A stretch of DNA of 34,829 nucleotides, from NCBI GenBank assembly GCA_035764505.1, contig DASTZC010000269.1, positions 1-34,829 on the forward strand. The letters are read 5' to 3'. The translations under genes were made by a program, and so were the position numbers. This document shows, one piece after another, positions 12,311 to 34,727 of the stretch. Positions within the stretch are counted from its first letter, which is position 1; each line of letters starts with the position of its first letter. Below the pieces are notes generated by a model. It was not told where the DNA came from, ran no database searches, and worked only from the letters and a program-made list of their open reading frames with translations. Source of the DNA: Candidatus Polarisedimenticolia bacterium (lineage in GTDB: Bacteria > Acidobacteriota > Polarisedimenticolia > Gp22-AA2 > AA152).

Positions 12311-13356
12311 AACACCGCAATCCCAAGATCAACCGCTATTACATGATCTTGCCCGAGGACGGCTTCCTCGGCCGCTGGCGCAAGCGCCTGACCCGGCGGC
12401 CGGTGCCGCGCTTTCCCCGCAACATCCAGATCCAGACGCAGACCGGCTGCAACGCCGACTGCGTCTTCTGCCCCTACGGCGCCACCGCCGACAGCCAGCC
12501 CAAGGGGAAGATGGACTGGGATCTGTTCCGCAAGATCATCGATGAGACCGTCGGCTACCGCGTCCGCCGCATCAGCCCTTACCTGATGAACGAGCCTTTC
12601 GTGGATCGCGAGATCTTCGAGCGCATCCGCTACATCAACCGCGTCAATCCACGCGCCAAGGTGATTCTCACGAGCAACGGCTCGCTGCTGACCGAGGAGG
12701 TCGTGGGCCGCATCGTGGATCTGGGCGACGGCCTGCACGAGCTGGCAATCTCGGTGCAGGGAATCGATCCCGACGCCTACGAGAAGACGATGCGCGGCGG
12801 GCTGCGCTTCGACCGGACGATGGCCAACGTGGACCGCCTGATCGAGGCGCTGCGCCGGCGGCAGGCCACCCGGCCGGCCCTCTGGATCACGATGGTCGAC
12901 ACGGAGCTGATCGACGCGAAGAAGGCCGTGGAATACTGGCGCGGGCGCGGCGTGAACGCGCGCTACACCATGCTGGAGAATCGCGGCGGGAACATCACGG
13001 ACGCCGAGGAGATGGCGCACCACGAGCAGATGGACTATTTCAGCGACTGCACGCGGCTGCTCAAGCAGGCCTACATCAAGTTCAACGGCGACCTGGTCCT
13101 GTGCTGCACCGATTACGATGCGAAGGTCATCCTGGGCAACGTGCGGGAGAAGAGCCTGTACGAGGTGTGGAACGGCGAGATGGCCACCTCCATCCGGAGG
13201 AAGTTCCTCTCGGACCGCATCGGCGAGATTTCCCTGTGCAGCGTCTGCAAGGTGGATCGCGAGAAGGAAATCGCGGTCAAGGCAAGCGGTCCCACGCCGT
13301 TTGCCACGAGACCGTCGCTCCCGACGGCCACCCCGGCCACTCGGGCTACTCCTTGA
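12307..13356 (+). CDS. Radical SAM protein with SPASM-type C-terminal cluster region
   Basis: The 349-residue protein has the radical SAM CxxxCxxC motif at C48, C52 and C55 (TGCNADCVFC), which binds the [4Fe-4S] cluster that cleaves SAM. A TIM-barrel half follows, then a SPASM-like Cys region: the YIKFNGDLVLCCTDYD phrase with paired Cys, GNVREKSLYEVWNG and a final CSVCKVDRE. SPASM proteins bind one or two extra clusters and modify peptides or sugars; the substrate here is unknown. Context suggests glycan or envelope modification. The start is GTG 12307 (GTGA with the GT4 stop). The tail is a Thr/Pro/Ala-rich extension whose end overlaps the convergent regulator gene by 11 bases. Confidence 0.9.
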   Translation: MKHRNPKINRYYMILPEDGFLGRWRKRLTRRPVPRFPRNIQIQTQTGCNADCVFCPYGATADSQPKGKMDWDLFRKIIDETVGYRVRRISPYLMNEPFVDREIFERIRYINRVNPRAKVILTSNGSLLTEEVVGRIVDLGDGLHELAISVQGIDPDAYEKTMRGGLRFDRTMANVDRLIEALRRRQATRPALWITMVDTELIDAKKAVEYWRGRGVNARYTMLENRGGNITDAEEMAHHEQMDYFSDCTRLLKQAYIKFNGDLVLCCTDYDAKVILGNVREKSLYEVWNGEMATSIRRKFLSDRIGEISLCSVCKVDREKEIAVKASGPTPFATRPSLPTATPATRATP

Positions 13357-16300
13357 CGCGCAGCGAGCGCATCTTGCGGAACAGCGTCGCTCGCGAGATT
13401 CCCAGCAGCGCCGCCGCCTGAGAGCGGTTTCCCGCGGCGGCTTTCAGCGCCCGGCGCAGCTCGCCGCGGCTGAGGGCCGACTCCGGCGCCTTCTTTCCGC
13501 CCGGCAGGTCCGCCACCCGATCCAGCAGCTCCGGATCCCGCGCGAGATCCGAGAGCGTCAGCGAGGGGCCCTCGGCGAACAGGGCGAGGCGCGCCAGCGT
13601 GTTCTCCAGCTCCCGGATGTTGCCCGGCCAGGGATGCCGTGAGAGCACCGAGAGGACGTGCGGATCGATCCGCAAGGGGCGGGTCCCTTTCTCGGCCGCA
13701 ATCTTCTCCAGGAAATGGTCGATGAGCAGCGGCAGATCTTCCTTACGCTGCCTCAGCGGTGGCAGCGTCACGGTGACGACGTTGAGCCGGTAGAACAGGT
13801 CCTCGCGGAATCTTCGCTCGGCCACCATCGCCTTGAGGTCGCGGTTGGTGGCCGCCACGATACGCACGTCCACCTTGCGCGGCGCGCCGCTCCCCACGGG
13901 ACGGATTTCTCCTTCCTGGATGGCCCGCAGCAGCTTGCTCTGCAGCGGCAGGCTCATCTCCCCCAGCTCGTCCAGGAAGAGCGTGCCACCGTCGGCCAGC
14001 TCGAACAGGCCCGGCTTGTCCTGTTCGGCGCCGGTGAAGGCGCCGCGGACATGTCCGAACAGCTCGCTTTCCAGGAGGCTCTCCGGCAGCGCGGCGACGT
14101 TCTCGGTCAAAAACCGCCGGTCCTTGCGGCGCGAGTTGAAATGGATGGCGCGCGCGATCAGCTCCTTGCCGGTGCCGCTCTCTCCCTGGATGATCACCGG
14201 GAGCGCGGTATCCGCCACCTTCTCCACCCGCTCCAACGCGGCGATCAGCGCCGGGCTGGATCCGATGATGTTGCGGAAGGAGAAGCGGTTCTGCACCGTC
14301 TGCTTGAGGTAGAGGTTCTCCTGGCGGAGAGCCTCGACCAGCCGGGCGTTCTCGATCGCCACGGCGGCCTGGTTGGCGAACGCCTCGAGGAACTCGAGGT
14401 CCTCCTCGCCGAACAGGACGTCCCCACGGCGGCTGTCGAGATAGACGGTCCCCAGGATGCGCTCGCGGATCCGCAGGGGCACGCAGACCAGCGAGCGGAT
14501 GTTGTAGAGGCTAACGCTGTCGAAGCGCTCGAAGCGCCGGTCGGAGCCGGCATCCAGGGTGACGATTGGCTTTCCTTCGGCCGCCTCCTCGAGGATGCGG
14601 CGGCTGTACTCTCCGGCGTCCCGAATCGTCTCCTGGTCCAGGTTCCTGGCGACCCGCACCTTGAGCTCGCCGGCCTCCCCCTCGCGCAGGAAGATGAGAC
14701 CTCGCTCGGCGCCGACGATTTGAATCGCCAGGTCGAGGACGCGGCTCAGCAGCTCGGTGAGATCCTTCAGGGTGCTGACGATCTGCGTGATCTCGTAGAG
14801 GGTCGCCAGCATCTTCACCGGGGGCACCCGACGCGTCGCGGTCCCCATCGGACGATCCTCTCCGCCTTCCAGGGAGGCCAGACGCTCCCTGACCTGCTGG
14901 CGGGAACCCGTGGCCAGGTAGCGCCGTCGGGCGGACGAGTCCTCCAGCCGGGACGCGATCTCGCGATGCAGGCGCTCCACCTCCCGCAGCAGCGCCGCCC
15001 GACGCTCCGGCCTGGCCGATTTTTCCATCCATTCCGATTGCGCGATCCGGAGATCGGCTTCCTGGTCGCGCCGCGCCAGGTTCTGCGCCAGGCCGATCGC
15101 CTTTTCCAGGCACACGGAGGCCTCGTCCAGCCGTCCTTCGGCAAGACGGCAACGCCCCTCCGCCGCGCTGCACCGCAGGCGCTCCTCGACGCTGCTGTTG
15201 CCGCCCAGCAGATCCTCCATCTCGTGTGCCCGGGTAGAGGCTTCGCGGAGCGACCCGGTTCCCAGAAGGGCATCCAGCAACGCCTCCAGGGATCCCAGCT
15301 GCAATCGCCGGTTCTTCAGTCGGCGCGCCAGGACCAGGGCCTTCTCCCCGCCGGAGAGCGCTTCGCGGTGCTTTCCCTCCTCCAGGGCGTCGCGCGCCAG
15401 CGCGAGCAGGAGAAAACCCTCCTGGAGATCGTGCGAGCCTTCCCGCGCGATCCGCAGCCCTTCCTGGTGGGCTTCCCATGCCCCCGCCGAATCGCCCAAT
15501 CGCCGCCGCGCGGTTCCCAGCAGGTCGAGCGACAAGGGCTGCAGCGACGTGTCGCCGATCTGCTTGCGAATCTCGAGCGCCTCCTCCGCCAGGCGAGCCG
15601 TCCGATCGTAGCGGCAGCGCGCCAGCTCGATCTCGGCCAGCGAGCTGAGGACCACGGCCAAGGTGGCCCGATCCGGCGTGGACCGGTAGAGGGCCGCCGA
15701 TTCCTCGGCGCGTTCGCCGGCTTCCTCCAGCCGTCCCAGGTCCTTGAGGGCCTGGGCCATGTTCCCAAGGGTCATGGCGACTCCCCGGCGATCGCCCAGC
15801 TTTCGCCAGGCTTCAAGCGCCTCGCCGTAAAGCTGCAGCGACACTTCCGGGCGATTCAAAGAGCTCTGCACCGTGCCCAGGTTGGTCTTGACGGTGACCA
15901 CCTGCCAGGCGTCCCCGGCCGCCTCCAGGTGCTCCAGAGCCTGGGTGAAATAGGGGACCGCCTCCTCCAGCTGGCCCATGCGGCCGTAAGCGGTCCCCAG
16001 GAAGTTCTTGGCGCGTCCGATTCCCAGCTGATCTCCCAGAGGCTCGAGCAGCGCCAATGCGGACCGCGCGCCGCGCACCGCCTGATCCAGATGGCCCTGA
16101 AGGAGATGGCCGTGCGCCATCGTCGCCAGGATCTGTCCCTCCTCCTTGCGATCCTCGAGACTGCGCGCAAGCCGCAGGGCGCGTTCCGAGAAGTCGCTCA
16201 TCTCCGGGAAATCCGAAGCTCCGGCATGCAGCCTGGCCAGCCGCGCGAACAGGGTCATCCGCCGACGCGTTTCCTTGCGCGGCAGCAGCTCCAGCGCCTT

Positions 16301-18583
16301 GCGATAGAACTGCAGCGCCGCCGTGAACGCGAACAACCGGGCGCACTTGTCTCCCGCTTTCTCGGCATACTCGAGCGCCTGCGGCTTCGAACCTGCCTGG
16401 ATGAAGTGGTAGGCGATCTCCTCGAGCATCTCCTCCGCGCCGGCTCGTGCCTGCTCCTCGAGCAGGCTCCCCGCCGCCAGATGCAGGCGCAGGCGCTCGG
16501 CGCCCAGGCTGCGGTAGATGAGGTCGCGCGCCCGCGAGTGGGCGAATCCCAGCTTCTCCTCGCCCCCTTCGTGGGTGCGCCGCAGGATGCCGCGATGCAG
16601 CAGAGGAGGGATTTCGGCGCTCAGCCGGTCGGCTTCCCAGCCGCCCGCGCGGGCCAGCAGGACGCGAGCGACCGGCCGGTTGAATACCGACAGGACTCGC
16701 ACCAGCCCTCGCTGTGCTTCGCTCAGGCGCGCCAGCCGGCGCGTCAGGGTCTCGTTGATGCTGCGCGGCACTTCCAGGCGATCGAGGTGGGCCAGGTCGA
16801 CGTCCCACTCTCCGTCGCGCCGGGTGACGGCGTTCTCCTCGGCCAGCGCCTTGAGGATCTCCTCGATAAACAGCGGATTGCCCGCCGTCTGCCGCTGCAG
16901 GATGAGGGCCAGATCGGCGGGATCCTCCTGCAGGGACATCATCGACTGGATCAGGCTGCCGATCTCCGCCACATCCAGACGCTGCAGCCGCACGACGCTC
17001 TGGCGCGCTCCGGCCGAGACGTCGCGCACCAGCGACGCGATGGGTTTCCCCTCCAGCTCGTCGTCACGATAGGTTCCGATGATCAGGTAAGGAGCGCCCG
17101 GAGCGCGCTCCCGCAAGGCGCGCAACAGCTCGATGGTGAGCTCATCGGCCCAGTGCAGGTCCTCCAGCGCCAGGACGAACGGGCGCTTGAGACAGACCTC
17201 GCGCAGCAGCCGCTCGATCGCCTCGAACAAACGGGACTTCGCCTCGCGGGCCGAAAGAATCCCGGTGGAAGACGAGCCGGACTGCAGATCGGGAAACAGG
17301 GGGGCGAGAATTGCGCGCGAGTCGGCGTCGGATTTCCCGGACGAATCGCTCAAGGCCGGCGAGAGAAACCGGAAAGCTTCGACGAAAGGCTGGTAGACGC
17401 TCGCGCCGCTCTCGAAGCAGGAGCCCGACAGGAACAGCACTCCCTCGGTCTGGCTCTGGGTGCGGAACTCCCGCAGCAGGCGGCTCTTGCCGACGCCGCT
17501 CTCGCCGCCGATCAGGATGAGGCGTGGTAAGGGGGAATCTTCTTCCTCTGCCGGCGTCGCGGTAAGGCGGAGCAGGGCGGCGCGCAGCGCCTGCATCTCG
17601 CGATCCCGTCCGACCAGCGCCGCCGAAGTCAGGTAGCTGTCGCGCGTCTCGCGGGTTTCCAGCACGTGCCGGGTCCCGAGCGCCTCGTTCAAGGCGCGCA
17701 AGAGGGCAGCGGCGTCGCGCGGCCGATCTTCCGGGTTCTTTTCCAGCAGCCAGAGGATGAGACGATCCAGGCCCGCAGGCAGGGTCGGATCGAGGCTGCG
17801 CGGCGAAGGGGGAATCGCTTCGCGCTGCGCCCGGATCAGCGCGACAGGGTCGCGCTGCGTGAAGGGGAGCGATCCGGTGGCGAGCCGGTAGAGGACCATG
17901 CCGAGGGAATAGAGATCGGAGCGCGGGTCCAGCCGGCCGCCGGCGAGCGCCTCGGGGGGCGCGTAGTGGAGCGTGCCTCCGGGTCGGGACGGCTCATCCT
18001 GATCCAGGAAACGAGCCAGTCCGAAATCCATCAGCTTGACCTGAAAAGGACGGCCTGCCGCAGCTTCAGGCAGGGGCAGCAGGAAGATATTCTGCGGCTT
18101 GATGTCGTTATGGAGGATGCCCCGTGCGTGGATGTAATCGAGTGCGCGGCAGAGCTGGGCCACCAGCTCTCCGAGGTGTGGTCTGATCTCGGCCGGCTCC
18201 AGCGCGGCGAGGTCTTTTCCGTCCAGATACTCCAGCGTCAGGAAGGGCTCGCCTCCTTCGTCGAGCACCCCGTAGTCGTAGACCCGCGCCAGGTTGGGGT
18301 GGCGCAGGCGTACCATGGCGCGAAACTCCTGCTTGAGGCGCTCCTCGCCGCCCTCGCCGGTCAGCGTCCGGCGCAGGCGCTTGAGGGCCACCTGCCTTCC
18401 CCCGTCCAGGATGTCCTCGCAGAGGTAGACCTGGCCCATGCCGCCCTCCCCAAGCGGGCGGAGGATCCGGTAGCGATGGTTGAGGAGATCTCCTGCCTCA
18501 GGCAGAGTCCCTTCTCCCGACTTCCTGGCGTTGAGATGGATGAATTCCTTTCGAAGTGTACGACGAACGATGAGCCGGATCAA
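13346..18583 (-). CDS. Giant Ser/Thr kinase - ATPase - TPR - GAF - sigma54 activator - Fis HTH hybrid regulator
   Basis: One 1745-codon frame joins five modules. Residues 38-300 form a Hanks-type kinase with glycine loop GEGGMG (45-50), VALK lysine 68, catalytic loop HNDIKPQN (158-165, Asn in place of the usual Arg) and DFG (186-188). Residues 322-700 are an AAA_16/MalT-like ATPase with Walker A GGESGVGKS (359-367) and Walker B LALEDLHWAD. About 700-1200 are TPR repeats, then a GAF domain (about 1245-1415). Residues 1440-1670 are a sigma54-interacting AAA+ domain with GESGTGK (1467-1473), intact GAFTGA (1514-1519), TLFLDE and an arginine-finger region. A Fis-type HTH (1707-1741) ends it. All motor motifs look intact, so it should remodel sigma54 holoenzyme in response to kinase, TPR or GAF input. 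TTG 18583 is the only standard start before the kinase fold. The neighbour divergent at 18739 is a likely target. Confidence 0.95.
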   Translation of the reverse strand: MIRLIVRRTLRKEFIHLNARKSGEGTLPEAGDLLNHRYRILRPLGEGGMGQVYLCEDILDGGRQVALKRLRRTLTGEGGEERLKQEFRAMVRLRHPNLARVYDYGVLDEGGEPFLTLEYLDGKDLAALEPAEIRPHLGELVAQLCRALDYIHARGILHNDIKPQNIFLLPLPEAAAGRPFQVKLMDFGLARFLDQDEPSRPGGTLHYAPPEALAGGRLDPRSDLYSLGMVLYRLATGSLPFTQRDPVALIRAQREAIPPSPRSLDPTLPAGLDRLILWLLEKNPEDRPRDAAALLRALNEALGTRHVLETRETRDSYLTSAALVGRDREMQALRAALLRLTATPAEEEDSPLPRLILIGGESGVGKSRLLREFRTQSQTEGVLFLSGSCFESGASVYQPFVEAFRFLSPALSDSSGKSDADSRAILAPLFPDLQSGSSSTGILSAREAKSRLFEAIERLLREVCLKRPFVLALEDLHWADELTIELLRALRERAPGAPYLIIGTYRDDELEGKPIASLVRDVSAGARQSVVRLQRLDVAEIGSLIQSMMSLQEDPADLALILQRQTAGNPLFIEEILKALAEENAVTRRDGEWDVDLAHLDRLEVPRSINETLTRRLARLSEAQRGLVRVLSVFNRPVARVLLARAGGWEADRLSAEIPPLLHRGILRRTHEGGEEKLGFAHSRARDLIYRSLGAERLRLHLAAGSLLEEQARAGAEEMLEEIAYHFIQAGSKPQALEYAEKAGDKCARLFAFTAALQFYRKALELLPRKETRRRMTLFARLARLHAGASDFPEMSDFSERALRLARSLEDRKEEGQILATMAHGHLLQGHLDQAVRGARSALALLEPLGDQLGIGRAKNFLGTAYGRMGQLEEAVPYFTQALEHLEAAGDAWQVVTVKTNLGTVQSSLNRPEVSLQLYGEALEAWRKLGDRRGVAMTLGNMAQALKDLGRLEEAGERAEESAALYRSTPDRATLAVVLSSLAEIELARCRYDRTARLAEEALEIRKQIGDTSLQPLSLDLLGTARRRLGDSAGAWEAHQEGLRIAREGSHDLQEGFLLLALARDALEEGKHREALSGGEKALVLARRLKNRRLQLGSLEALLDALLGTGSLREASTRAHEMEDLLGGNSSVEERLRCSAAEGRCRLAEGRLDEASVCLEKAIGLAQNLARRDQEADLRIAQSEWMEKSARPERRAALLREVERLHREIASRLEDSSARRRYLATGSRQQVRERLASLEGGEDRPMGTATRRVPPVKMLATLYEITQIVSTLKDLTELLSRVLDLAIQIVGAERGLIFLREGEAGELKVRVARNLDQETIRDAGEYSRRILEEAAEGKPIVTLDAGSDRRFERFDSVSLYNIRSLVCVPLRIRERILGTVYLDSRRGDVLFGEEDLEFLEAFANQAAVAIENARLVEALRQENLYLKQTVQNRFSFRNIIGSSPALIAALERVEKVADTALPVIIQGESGTGKELIARAIHFNSRRKDRRFLTENVAALPESLLESELFGHVRGAFTGAEQDKPGLFELADGGTLFLDELGEMSLPLQSKLLRAIQEGEIRPVGSGAPRKVDVRIVAATNRDLKAMVAERRFREDLFYRLNVVTVTLPPLRQRKEDLPLLIDHFLEKIAAEKGTRPLRIDPHVLSVLSRHPWPGNIRELENTLARLALFAEGPSLTLSDLARDPELLDRVADLPGGKKAPESALSRGELRRALKAAAGNRSQAAALLGISRATLFRKMRSLRVKE

Positions 18584-31086: not shown

Positions 31087-31842
31087 TCAGTTCCTGCTGA
31101 GAGCCGGAGGGGGAATGCGGAAGGCGGTGGGCGCCGCTCGCGGGGGAAGATCACGTCGTGGGTCGCCGTCCTGCAGGCGCCGGTTGTCGGCCAGCGTAAG
31201 AATCTGATCAAAAGTGGCGCCGTCTTCGGGAAAGGTGGCACTCCCCAGGCGCGCGCGCGCCAGGCGGGCTCCGGCGGGAGATTCGTAGCGCACGCCGTGG
31301 ACCGCCACCCGCAGCCGGGCCTCGACGCGGCGCGATTCCTCACGCGACACTCCCGGGAGGATCAGAATGAATTCGTCGGCGGCGTAGCGGATGCAGGTGT
31401 CGCACCCCCGCATCTGCCCGCGCACCGCCAGGGCGACGCCGCGCAGCAGCCGATCGTAGGGTTCGGGATCCCCGGCATCGCTCGCCTGCGCGTTCTCCAG
31501 GGAGATGGTCAGCAGCGTGAGGGGAGCACCCCGCCCGCGCGCCCGGCGAATTTCCTCCTCGAAGGAAACGAAGAGGTAGCGGGAATCCGAAGGAATGGCG
31601 CGCGGAGCTTCCGTGGAAGGCGGAGCGCTCGAGGCGCGATTCGCGTCCACGTCCCCCACGAGCGGAGTCTTCGCGGTCCGTGAGATCCCCTCCAGCAGCT
31701 TCAGGTAGGACCTGGCCCTTTCTTCGGCCGCTTCGGCCCGCTGCCGGTGCTGCGCCACGCGGCGCCGCGCCAGCAAGGCCACTCCCAAAAGAAGCGCGCC
31801 GGCGGCGGTGAGAATCGTCAGGATCTGCGCCCCGATCGGCAT
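31087..31842 (-). CDS. Membrane-anchored degenerate GGDEF protein with intact I-site (c-di-GMP receptor candidate)
   Basis: This 251-residue protein has one N-terminal transmembrane helix (about 8-25), a short coiled coil (30-55) and a GGDEF-like domain from about residue 85. The signature that should read RYGGDEF is RYAADEF (A154-A155-D-E-F). Losing both glycines normally abolishes diguanylate cyclase activity. Five residues upstream is an RxxD (R145-G-C-D148), exactly where the inhibitory c-di-GMP binding site lies in PleD. A sensor that binds but does not make c-di-GMP is therefore likely, by inference. The -10 element ends six bases before the ATG, so the message is probably leaderless. 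It is divergent from the phosphodiesterase-fold gene. Confidence 0.85.
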   Translation of the reverse strand: MPIGAQILTILTAAGALLLGVALLARRRVAQHRQRAEAAEERARSYLKLLEGISRTAKTPLVGDVDANRASSAPPSTEAPRAIPSDSRYLFVSFEEEIRRARGRGAPLTLLTISLENAQASDAGDPEPYDRLLRGVALAVRGQMRGCDTCIRYAADEFILILPGVSREESRRVEARLRVAVHGVRYESPAGARLARARLGSATFPEDGATFDQILTLADNRRLQDGDPRRDLPPRAAPTAFRIPPPALSRN

Positions 31843-31910: not shown

Positions 31911-31916
31911 TATAAT
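31911..31916 (+). promoter_or_regulatory. Perfect -10 element TATAAT six bases before the start codon
   Basis: TATAAT at 31911-31916 is followed by six bases and ATG 31923, so initiation should fall on the start codon. The -35 region is weak (GACTTT at a 17-base spacing). There is no ribosome site in front of the gene. Confidence 0.6.
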
Positions 31917-31922
31917 CCGCGC

Positions 31923-34727
31923 ATGTCGCGGCGCTGGATTCTGCCGGTCGTCATCCTGGTCCTCCTCTTCGCCGCCAGTCTCATCAGCGTGGAGCCCGGC
32001 ACCGTGGGGGTCCTGCGCGGCGCCGCGGGCGGCAAGTCTTTCCTGCTCGAATCGGGCCTGCACTTCAGGATCCCGTTCCTGCAGCGTCTCATGGCTTATC
32101 CCGCCGGACCCTTTCCCCTCGACTTCACGCTCAATCTTCCCGCGCGCGAAGGGGCCCCGGTGCCGGTCCAGGTGCATTTCGAAGGCCTGCTCATCCGCGA
32201 TTCCCTGCTCGAGTTCTCCTCGCGGGCCTCCGGCAGGAACGGTCCGACCGTGGTGCGCGAAGACCTGGAGTCCCTCATCGGCCCCTGGATCGCCCGGCAC
32301 ACCGCCGACGAGATCCCCGTGCAGCCGCTCGATCTGGCCGACGAGTTCCGCGACCGCGCCCGGAAGCTGGGCTTCCAGATCAAGGTGCTCACGGTCATGC
32401 GCGCCCCGGCCGGCGGAGCGCAGCCGGCGGCCCGCACACCCGCTCCCCCCGCGCCGGGACCCCGGGTCCGGGTGGCCCTGATAGGTCTCGACGGCGCCGA
32501 TTGGCAGCTCATCTCCCCGTTGATGGAGCGCGGCAAGCTGCCGCACCTGGCGAGCCTGAAAAAGGAAGGTGCCTGGGCCGAGATGCGCTCCATGGATCCG
32601 ATGCTTTCTCCGCTGCTGTGGACCAGCGCCGCCACGGGCAAGCTGCCCGAGGAGCATGGCGTGGTCGACTTCATGATGCGCGATCCGGAGAGCGGCAAGC
32701 GGGTCCCGGTGGGCGCCGCCTCGAGGCGCGTGCAGGCTTTGTGGGGAATTCTCTCGGGGTCGGGACTTTCCTGCGACGTGGTGGCCTGGTGGGCCACCTG
32801 GCCCGCGGAGACCATCAACGGCACGATGATCTCCGACCGGGTCGCCTATTCGCTGTTTTCCGCAGACGGTGCGCCGCCGCCGGCGGGGGCCGTCAGCCCT
32901 CCCGAATACTCCAGCCGGGCCGCCCGGCTCAAGGTCGGTGCCGAGAGCATCTCGGCCCAGGACCTGGCGCCCTTCCTGGAGATTTCCGCTCGACAGCTGG
33001 CCGATCTCAGAAAGCGCGCCGCCGCCGACGCGGCGCTGCGCGCCCGGGATCCGGTGCTGCACCTGACGCGCATCCTGGCGGCGAGCAGGACCTACCAGGC
33101 CATCGCCCTCGACCTTTTGGATAGCCGCCAGCCCGATTTCTTCGCCATCTACTACCAGGGGATCGACGAAGTCAGCCATCGCTTCGCGCATTTCGCCGAC
33201 CCGAAGATGGCGATGGTGAGCGAAGCGGATTACCGGCGATTCCGCGGGGTGGTCGACGCCTACTACGAGTACCAGGATCACCAGCTGGGCGAGCTCCTCT
33301 CGCGCCTCGATCCCTCCAGTCTCGTCCTGGTGCTCTCGGATCACGGCTTCAAGAACGGCGATGCGCGCCCGCGCGACCACCCGCCCGATATCGAAGGCCA
33401 GCCGGCACGCTGGCACCGGCGGGAAGGGATCTTCCTGGCCAAAGGTCCGATGGTGGCGCCGGGAGAGAAGAAGGCCTTCTCGTTGCTGGAGGTGGCGCCC
33501 CTGGTCCTGTCGGCCGAAGGGCTGCCCACGGCGCAGGACATGCCCGGAGTGGTGCGCGAGGATCTCTACGCCTCGGAGTTTGCGCTCTCCCGCCCGCGCC
33601 AGCCGGTATCGACCTATGAGACGCGGATCAGCCCGAAGGCGGCATCACCGGTGGCGGCCGCCGATCCGGCCTCCGCGCAGGCGCAGGAGGCGATGGAAGA
33701 AAACCTCCGCTCCCTGGGCTACATCGGCTCAGGCAAGGGAGGCCAGGAGCCGACCGATACCGCGTTCGCGCATGCCAACCTGGCCGGCATCTACCTGCAG
33801 CGCGGGCGCACCGCCGAGGCGGAGAAGGAAGCGAAGGAAGCGCTGCGTATCGTCCCGGGCTATCTCCCGGCGCTGGTCTATCTCGCGGAGGCGTACCAGC
33901 GGCAGGGACGCTTCGAGGAGGCGATTCCCCCGGCACGCCAGGCAATCTCCACCGACAGTCCCGATCGGCAGCCCGGGATCTATCTCCTGCTCGCCAATCT
34001 CTACGTCTCCGCCGGCAAGGCGGGGGAGGGGTTGTCCGATCTCTCCACTTTCCTGGCGCAACGGGGCAACGAGAGCGACCTGCATTCCGCCTTCGGCATC
34101 CTCAAGGCGGCGGGCGGGGACCCCGCGGGCGCCGAAGCGGCCTTCCGCCAGGCCCTGCGCCTCGATCCCGCGGCGCAGGAGCCGGTGAAGCGACTGTTCG
34201 ATCTGTATCGCAAGCAGGGAAGTCCCGAGCGATTGGTCTCCTGGATGGAGTCCCTCCGGAAGCAGAACCCGGATTCGGCTTTCCATGCGAGCTATTACGC
34301 TCTGGCCCTCGATCAGGCCGGCCGTCCGAAGGAGGCGGAGAGCGCCTACCGGCGCGCGCTCGAGAAGGATCCGGCGCACGTCGGGTCGCTCGTGAACCTG
34401 GGAAACCTCCTGGCGCGCACGCGCCGCTTCCAGGAAGCGATTCCGCTGTTCCGCAAGGCGATTGACGAGGATCCGCGCAGCACCGAGGGGCGCGTCGGAC
34501 TGGGCGCGGCGCTGAGCCTGGCGGGGAAGAATGACGAATCCGTGGCCGTGCTGGAAGAAGGGGAGAAGCTGGGGCTGTCCTCTCCGGCGCTGTACAACGC
34601 CCTCGCGATGGCTTACTACCAGCAACGCCGCAAGCGGGAAGCGATTGTCTCGCTCAAGCGGTCGCTGCAGCTCGACCCGGCGCAGTCTTCGGCGCGATCT
34701 CTGCTCGACGAGTGGCAAAGACCTTGA
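31923..34727 (+). CDS. SPFH-like domain + alkaline-phosphatase-superfamily phosphodiesterase domain + TPR fusion
   Basis: This 934-residue protein has an N-terminal helix (5-22) and an SPFH/Band-7-like segment (23-160; EPGTVGVLRGAAGG, LLESGLHFRIPFLQ). A Pro/Ala linker leads to a type I phosphodiesterase/nucleotide-pyrophosphatase fold. Its metal-site features are LIGLDGADW (D190), DPMLSPLLWTSAATG with S229 at the nucleophile place, YYQGIDEVSHRF (D415, H419), LSDHGF (D473, H474) and H498. Residues 615-930 are TPR repeats. All metal ligands expected of the fold are visible, so it is probably active on a phosphoester or phosphoglycan in the periplasm; the substrate is unknown. An earlier TTG at 31893 would precede the promoter's -10, so ATG 31923 is chosen. 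Bases 34728-34829 hold nothing I recognise. Confidence 0.9.
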   Translation: MSRRWILPVVILVLLFAASLISVEPGTVGVLRGAAGGKSFLLESGLHFRIPFLQRLMAYPAGPFPLDFTLNLPAREGAPVPVQVHFEGLLIRDSLLEFSSRASGRNGPTVVREDLESLIGPWIARHTADEIPVQPLDLADEFRDRARKLGFQIKVLTVMRAPAGGAQPAARTPAPPAPGPRVRVALIGLDGADWQLISPLMERGKLPHLASLKKEGAWAEMRSMDPMLSPLLWTSAATGKLPEEHGVVDFMMRDPESGKRVPVGAASRRVQALWGILSGSGLSCDVVAWWATWPAETINGTMISDRVAYSLFSADGAPPPAGAVSPPEYSSRAARLKVGAESISAQDLAPFLEISARQLADLRKRAAADAALRARDPVLHLTRILAASRTYQAIALDLLDSRQPDFFAIYYQGIDEVSHRFAHFADPKMAMVSEADYRRFRGVVDAYYEYQDHQLGELLSRLDPSSLVLVLSDHGFKNGDARPRDHPPDIEGQPARWHRREGIFLAKGPMVAPGEKKAFSLLEVAPLVLSAEGLPTAQDMPGVVREDLYASEFALSRPRQPVSTYETRISPKAASPVAAADPASAQAQEAMEENLRSLGYIGSGKGGQEPTDTAFAHANLAGIYLQRGRTAEAEKEAKEALRIVPGYLPALVYLAEAYQRQGRFEEAIPPARQAISTDSPDRQPGIYLLLANLYVSAGKAGEGLSDLSTFLAQRGNESDLHSAFGILKAAGGDPAGAEAAFRQALRLDPAAQEPVKRLFDLYRKQGSPERLVSWMESLRKQNPDSAFHASYYALALDQAGRPKEAESAYRRALEKDPAHVGSLVNLGNLLARTRRFQEAIPLFRKAIDEDPRSTEGRVGLGAALSLAGKNDESVAVLEEGEKLGLSSPALYNALAMAYYQQRRKREAIVSLKRSLQLDPAQSSARSLLDEWQRP

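What the first reader, a model, noticed from the sequence alone, without database searches (positions are those of the whole stretch)
31923..34727. SPFH-like membrane domain fused to a phosphodiesterase-fold enzyme and TPRs
The first 160 residues look like the start of an SPFH/Band-7 protein (helix, EPGTVGV, ESGLHFRIPF). They continue into a complete AlkP-superfamily catalytic domain and then about nine TPR-like units. SPFH domains form large membrane cages; a caged or microdomain-bound phosphohydrolase with a TPR docking arm would be a new arrangement. AlkP-TPR fusions exist; the SPFH part is what is unusual.
Basis: partly seen in the sequence, partly recalled or inferred. Interest (0 to 1): 0.65.

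Follow-up and report, generated by a model that had tools for sequence, protein, structure and literature searches.

The report
SPFH-anchored periplasmic phosphodiesterase with TPR tail
The gene joins a real prohibitin/HflK-like membrane domain, a complete phosphodiesterase-type enzyme and a nine-repeat protein-binding tail, and it belongs to a little-known family, six copies in this one genome, that appears to use a membrane-organising domain to hold an enzyme at the cell membrane of certain Acidobacteriota.

Summary
Window 31923-34727 (+) encodes 934 residues: one transmembrane helix, an SPFH domain (about 20-160), a disordered linker of about 20 residues, an NPP-like AlkP domain (183-602) and nine TPRs (614-932). 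SPFH rests on three lines: Pfam Band_7 above cut-off, a family profile that finds HflK and prohibitins in the PDB (E about 1e-12), and an AlphaFold2 model (pLDDT 91) whose 50 listed PDB matches are all SPFH or vault proteins. The proposed refutation failed. It is no oddity: the genome holds six such proteins plus one SPFH-TPR protein; the architecture runs through this Acidobacteriota class and occurs in four other phyla. Homologs without SPFH mostly carry a lipoprotein signal instead, so SPFH fills the place of a membrane anchor and the enzyme faces the periplasm. Seven putative catalytic residues are invariant in 104 proteins. The 'cage' part is not supported: the coiled coil that builds SPFH cages is absent (linker median 22 residues, 87 proteins). 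The substrate is unknown. The window's subfamily has a divergent GGDEF-family neighbour in two bacterial families. No paper describing the fusion was found. New variant of a known kind.

The parts
31911..31916 (+). TATAAT box 6 bases before the ATG (possible leaderless transcript)
   Evidence: Sequence read directly; same box at the same distance in the same-genus and same-family orthologs L049 and L050.
31923..34727 (+). SPFH-AlkP-TPR protein, 934 aa
   Evidence: Open frame; Pfam; six proteins of this architecture in the genome.
31923..31985 (+). N-terminal transmembrane helix (residues 1-21), positive charges before it
   Evidence: Hydropathy and charge count: net positive charge before the helix in all 45 SPFH members examined.
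31980..32402 (+). SPFH (Band_7) domain, residues about 20-160
   Evidence: Pfam, PDB profile search, AlphaFold2 and Foldseek.
32403..32468 (+). Disordered Ala/Pro-rich linker (residues 161-182); no coiled coil
   Evidence: pLDDT 43-48; linker length in 87 proteins.
32469..33728 (+). AlkP-superfamily, NPP-like phosphodiesterase domain (residues 183-602); putative metal and nucleophile residues D190, S229, D415, H419, D473, H474, H498
   Evidence: Pfam Phosphodiest; invariant in 104 of 104; Foldseek match to NPP3.
33762..34724 (+). Nine TPRs and a capping helix (residues 614-934)
   Evidence: Pfam TPR models; helix pairs in the model.
31087..31842 (-). Divergently transcribed membrane protein with a degenerate GGDEF domain (AADEF), conserved neighbour
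   Evidence: Pfam GGDEF 2e-11; same arrangement in nine loci of two families.

Best explanation
It is an inner-membrane-anchored enzyme facing the periplasm. One N-terminal helix and an SPFH module of the HflK/C-prohibitin type sit at the outer face of the inner membrane and, most likely through SPFH-SPFH or SPFH-lipid contacts, gather the protein into patches or small oligomers. A flexible linker carries a metal-dependent NPP-like phosphodiesterase, and a nine-repeat TPR arm binds a partner protein. The SPFH module does the job that a lipid anchor does in the family's lipoprotein relatives, with added lateral organisation. Shown by computation: the three domains, a full set of putative catalytic residues, absence of the cage coiled coil, spread and paralogy. 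Inferred: periplasmic side, clustering, partner binding. Unknown: the substrate (a phosphodiester, perhaps of a lipid head group, nucleotide or envelope polymer).
For: SPFH. Enzyme: Phosphodiest 7e-32; D190, S229, D415, H419, D473, H474, H498 identical in all 104 AlkP domains; fold match to NPP3 and weak sequence matches to bacterial NPPs and phosphonoacetate hydrolase. Periplasmic side: net positive charge before the single helix in all 45; of 31 homologs without a recognised SPFH, 12 by a strict pattern and about 21 by eye have a lipobox directly before the AlkP domain, including one in this genome (L017). Exchange of anchor: SPFH, lipoprotein and plain-helix forms are partly interleaved on the AlkP tree. 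No coiled coil.
Against: No experiment. Oligomerisation and microdomain binding are not shown, and SPFH proteins without their coiled coil may not assemble. L059, on the branch next to the window's subfamily, has the AlkP-TPR part with a plain helix and no SPFH, so SPFH is dispensable in at least one relative. Some canonical SPFH groups (p-stomatins) face the cytoplasm (PMC2636767).
Confidence: 0.62

Rival explanations
1. SPFH is only a passive membrane spacer: the protein is monomeric, and the SPFH fold merely holds the enzyme near the bilayer without clustering.
For: No coiled coil; flexible linker; swap with simple lipoprotein or single-helix anchors.
Against: A 140-residue fold kept in order and length in over 70 distinct proteins, and also present with TPRs but no enzyme (C211 and similar frames), suggests more than a spacer.
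Confidence: 0.25
2. It forms a closed HflK/C-like or prohibitin-like cage, with the AlkP domains in or on the wall, enclosing the substrate.
For: Closest folds are prohibitin and HflK/C, which form cages.
Against: The wall and lid coiled coil is missing in all 87 proteins measured, and the joint is disordered.
Confidence: 0.05
3. The AlkP domain is a catalytically dead scaffold and the protein is an adaptor built from SPFH and TPR.
For: TPR and SPFH are both interaction modules; an SPFH-TPR protein without AlkP exists (C211); the Asn that follows the HG(I/V) motif in NPPs is Phe here (recalled alignment, not computed).
Against: All seven putative catalytic residues are invariant in 104 of 104.
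Confidence: 0.06
4. The SPFH resemblance is a chance likeness of a signal region.
For: The single-sequence PDB search alone is weak (prohibitin E = 0.066).
Against:: independent sequence and structure matches across 40 relatives and several phyla.
Confidence: 0.01

Closest known systems
HflK/HflC and prohibitins (SPFH3/SPFH4 of the 2009 survey, PMC2636767)
   Same: N-terminal helix followed by SPFH1-SPFH2; best profile and fold matches; presumed periplasmic side as in HflK/C.
   Different: No coiled coil after SPFH2; an AlkP enzyme and TPRs instead; 934 rather than about 300-420 residues; no FtsH link looked for or seen.
NPP / type I phosphodiesterase family of the AlkP superfamily (Pfam PF01663)
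   Same: Fold and metal-site residues.
   Different: Putative nucleophile is Ser (S229) rather than Thr; fused between SPFH and TPR; substrate unknown.
Lipoprotein AlkP-TPR proteins of Planctomycetota, Myxococcota, Krumholzibacteriota and others
   Same: Same AlkP domain and C-terminal TPRs.
   Different: Anchored by a lipobox cysteine instead of helix plus SPFH.
Bacterial flotillins / functional membrane microdomains
   Same: SPFH domain at the membrane.
   Different: Flotillins have a long coiled coil and no enzyme; not the closest SPFH group by profile (flotillin-1 E = 0.05).

Membership tests
SPFH / Band_7 superfamily | Recognisable SPFH sequence profile (PF01145) | tested here: met
   Above the curated cut-off in P0001; E <= 0.01 in 40 of 45 members.
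SPFH / Band_7 superfamily | SPFH1-SPFH2 fold after a membrane segment | tested here: met
   Model pLDDT 90.9; Foldseek top match prohibitin 4.8e-9.
SPFH / Band_7 superfamily | Long coiled coil after SPFH2 (cage-forming members) | tested here: not met
   AlkP begins a median 22 residues after SPFH, n = 87; disordered linker.
SPFH / Band_7 superfamily | Ring or cage oligomers | not testable with these tools
   Needs native mass or EM.
AlkP superfamily, type I phosphodiesterase / NPP | Profile and fold | tested here: met
   PF01663 7e-32; NPP3 fold match.
AlkP superfamily, type I phosphodiesterase / NPP | Two-metal ligand set and nucleophile | tested here: met
   D190, S229, D415, H419, D473, H474, H498 invariant in 104 of 104; assignment to metal sites by motif pattern, not by structure superposition.
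AlkP superfamily, type I phosphodiesterase / NPP | Phosphodiester hydrolysis | not testable with these tools
   Needs an assay.
TPR proteins | Tandem 34-residue helix pairs | tested here: met
   nine pairs between 614 and 917.
HflK/C (FtsH modulators) | Equivalog score of the HflC model | tested here: not met
   HflC model 10.7 bits against a cut-off of 427.

The most novel reading that the evidence does not exclude
SPFH modules in this lineage are ring- or patch-forming platforms that carry enzymes and TPR adaptors on the periplasmic face of the inner membrane, so that a set of six SPFH-AlkP-TPR paralogs plus an SPFH-TPR protein builds mixed enzyme assemblies; the window's one works with the neighbouring degenerate GGDEF membrane protein as a signal-controlled envelope phosphodiesterase.
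Probability: 0.15. Interest if true: 0.75.

Novelty: new variant of a known kind. Interest (0 to 1): 0.5.

Why it matters
SPFH proteins are known as scaffolds around other proteins; here the scaffold domain is built into the enzyme itself, in place of both a lipid anchor and the cage coiled coil. The expanded paralogous set gives natural variants for asking what an SPFH domain does without its coiled coil: is it an anchor, a lipid sensor or an oligomer seed? The window's organism and the named relatives are nearly all known only from metagenomes, which may be why the family has escaped description.

Tried and rejected
Chance resemblance of the N-terminus (rejected). An assembly or frame artefact (rejected: same architecture in many genomes). 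An HflK/C equivalog (rejected). A first genome-contig scan with the single protein found nothing; the alignment found 80 loci. Thr234 as nucleophile was considered first; motif spacing to the invariant Trp (S229-P-L-L-W233, as in T-x-P-A-W of other AlkP phosphodiesterases, recalled) and invariance point to S229. A promoter/terminator scan gave nothing useful. Literature searches for SPFH-phosphodiesterase or SPFH-TPR fusions found no description; the main text of the 2009 survey of prokaryotic SPFH proteins has no mention of phosphatase or TPR.

Full report
What is there. The open frame 31923-34727 (+) encodes 934 residues. Pfam finds Band_7/SPFH at 22-147, type I phosphodiesterase at 184-480 and TPRs from about 610 to 925. 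The full AlphaFold2 model (45-sequence alignment, mean pLDDT 88.6) shows a helix, an SPFH domain, a disordered stretch 161-182, the AlkP domain, low-confidence stretches around 568-576 and 605-610, and nine TPR helix pairs plus a last helix.

Is SPFH real? The single-sequence PDB search is weak (prohibitin, E = 0.066), so it was tested further. (i) Pfam Band_7 passes its curated cut-off in the window protein, and 40 of 45 family members match it at E 0.01 or better when scanned one by one. (ii) A profile of the 45 N-termini finds HflK at 1.5e-12, prohibitin-2 at 2.6e-12, then HflC, erlin, stomatin and QmcA, aligned from the membrane helix to about the start of the coiled coil. (iii) The model of residues 1-185 (pLDDT 90.9) matches in the PDB only SPFH proteins and, more weakly, vault protein among the 50 listed.

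What is missing. In HflK/C and prohibitins SPFH2 runs into a long coiled coil that forms the cage wall (established knowledge). In 87 proteins with both domains complete, AlkP starts a median of 22 residues (range -7 to 31) after SPFH. Some members still show what look like the first residues of that helix (for example PPEVRASFERATIYGRRVETGARVVLVGIDAGD in L069) and then pass straight into AlkP. The enzyme thus takes the place of the coiled coil, and a cage of the known design is unlikely.

The enzyme. Among 104 distinct AlkP domains D190, S229, D415, H419, D473, H474 and H498 are all identical, the pattern of two metal sites and a nucleophile (assigned by motif). The best AlkP-type match in the fold search is NPP3; there are weak sequence matches to bacterial NPPs and phosphonoacetate hydrolase. 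A working phosphodiesterase is likely; its substrate cannot be told.

Which side of the membrane. All 45 SPFH members examined have net positive charge before their single helix. Homologs without a recognised SPFH mostly carry a lipobox directly before AlkP (12 of 31 by a strict pattern, about 21 by eye), among them a paralog in this genome (L017). Both point to the periplasm. On the AlkP tree the SPFH label is clustered but needs about ten changes (six forced by well supported branches; the tree is a quick one), and L059 without SPFH stands next to the window's subfamily: anchors have been exchanged.

Spread. The genome (4.46 Mb, 288 contigs) has 11 Band_7 hits: four ordinary SPFH proteins, six SPFH-AlkP-TPR proteins (window, C27, C184, C78, C222, C38) and one SPFH-TPR protein without AlkP (C211). 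All 20 relatives searched have an AlkP homolog. In a draw of 149 genomes of the phylum, family-type SPFH domains in long frames (about 840 residues or more) occur in 13 of the 16 genomes of the window's class that are listed with a match, and in few outside it (frame length used as a proxy). Named relatives are Acidobacteriota MAGs (isolate PMV_2.74 nearest, several 'gp22', Candidatus Polarisedimenticola), and the three-part form also occurs in Eiseniibacteriota, Krumholzibacteriota, Latescibacterota and UBP1, confirmed with Pfam Band_7 above cut-off in L131 (second gene), L142, L137 and L127, slightly below it in L130 and L147.

Neighbourhood. The gene on the other strand just upstream encodes a membrane protein with a degenerate GGDEF domain (AADEF). 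The same divergent arrangement, with a longer HD-GAF-GGDEF or GGDEF protein sharing the RYLFVSFEE...RYA(A/G)DEF segment, stands beside the related gene in six genomes of a second family. The window's genome has only about twelve GGDEF genes, so this is unlikely to be chance; a shared regulatory role is inferred. Other paralog groups have other fixed places: inside yebC-ruvC-[gene]-ruvA-ruvB, and after dnaE-metK-ahcY with lptF/G beyond. These are housekeeping loci and say little about function.

Known or new. Each domain is known; AlkP-TPR proteins exist widely; searches of 5.4 million papers found no description of SPFH joined to a phosphodiesterase, and the 2009 survey of prokaryotic SPFH proteins (PMC2636767) does not mention it. 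I call it a new variant of a known kind. Confidence in the architecture is about 0.97; in the functional reading about 0.6.

Noticed in passing
window 31087-31842 (-): Membrane protein with a GGDEF domain whose motif is AADEF, probably inactive as a cyclase; divergent neighbour conserved across two families, where longer forms carry HD and GAF domains.
   Followed up: partly
L009 (G000:C211, - strand, about 19-20.2 kb): A 419-residue SPFH-TPR protein with no AlkP domain, with similar-sized SPFH frames (450-477 aa) in related genomes; an ORF for a TPR protein with a lipoprotein-like start lies just upstream.
   Followed up: partly
L069 2300-8433, L013 135-4892: One SPFH-AlkP-TPR paralog sits inside the yebC-ruvC-ruvA-ruvB cluster, between ruvC and ruvA, in about 11 loci.
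   Followed up: partly
L077 1532-14391: Another paralog group follows dnaE-metK-ahcY and faces lptF/G.
   Followed up: partly
window 31911-31923: TATAAT box 6 bases before the ATG, also in L049 and L050: probable leaderless transcript.
   Followed up: partly
window 13346-18583 (-): 1745-residue regulator: protein kinase, AAA, TPR, GAF, sigma-54 activator and Fis-type HTH in one chain; a homolog lies next to the GGDEF/SPFH-AlkP locus in the second family.
   Followed up: no
L131 657-5843: Two SPFH-AlkP-TPR genes in tandem in an Eiseniibacteriota MAG.
   Followed up: no
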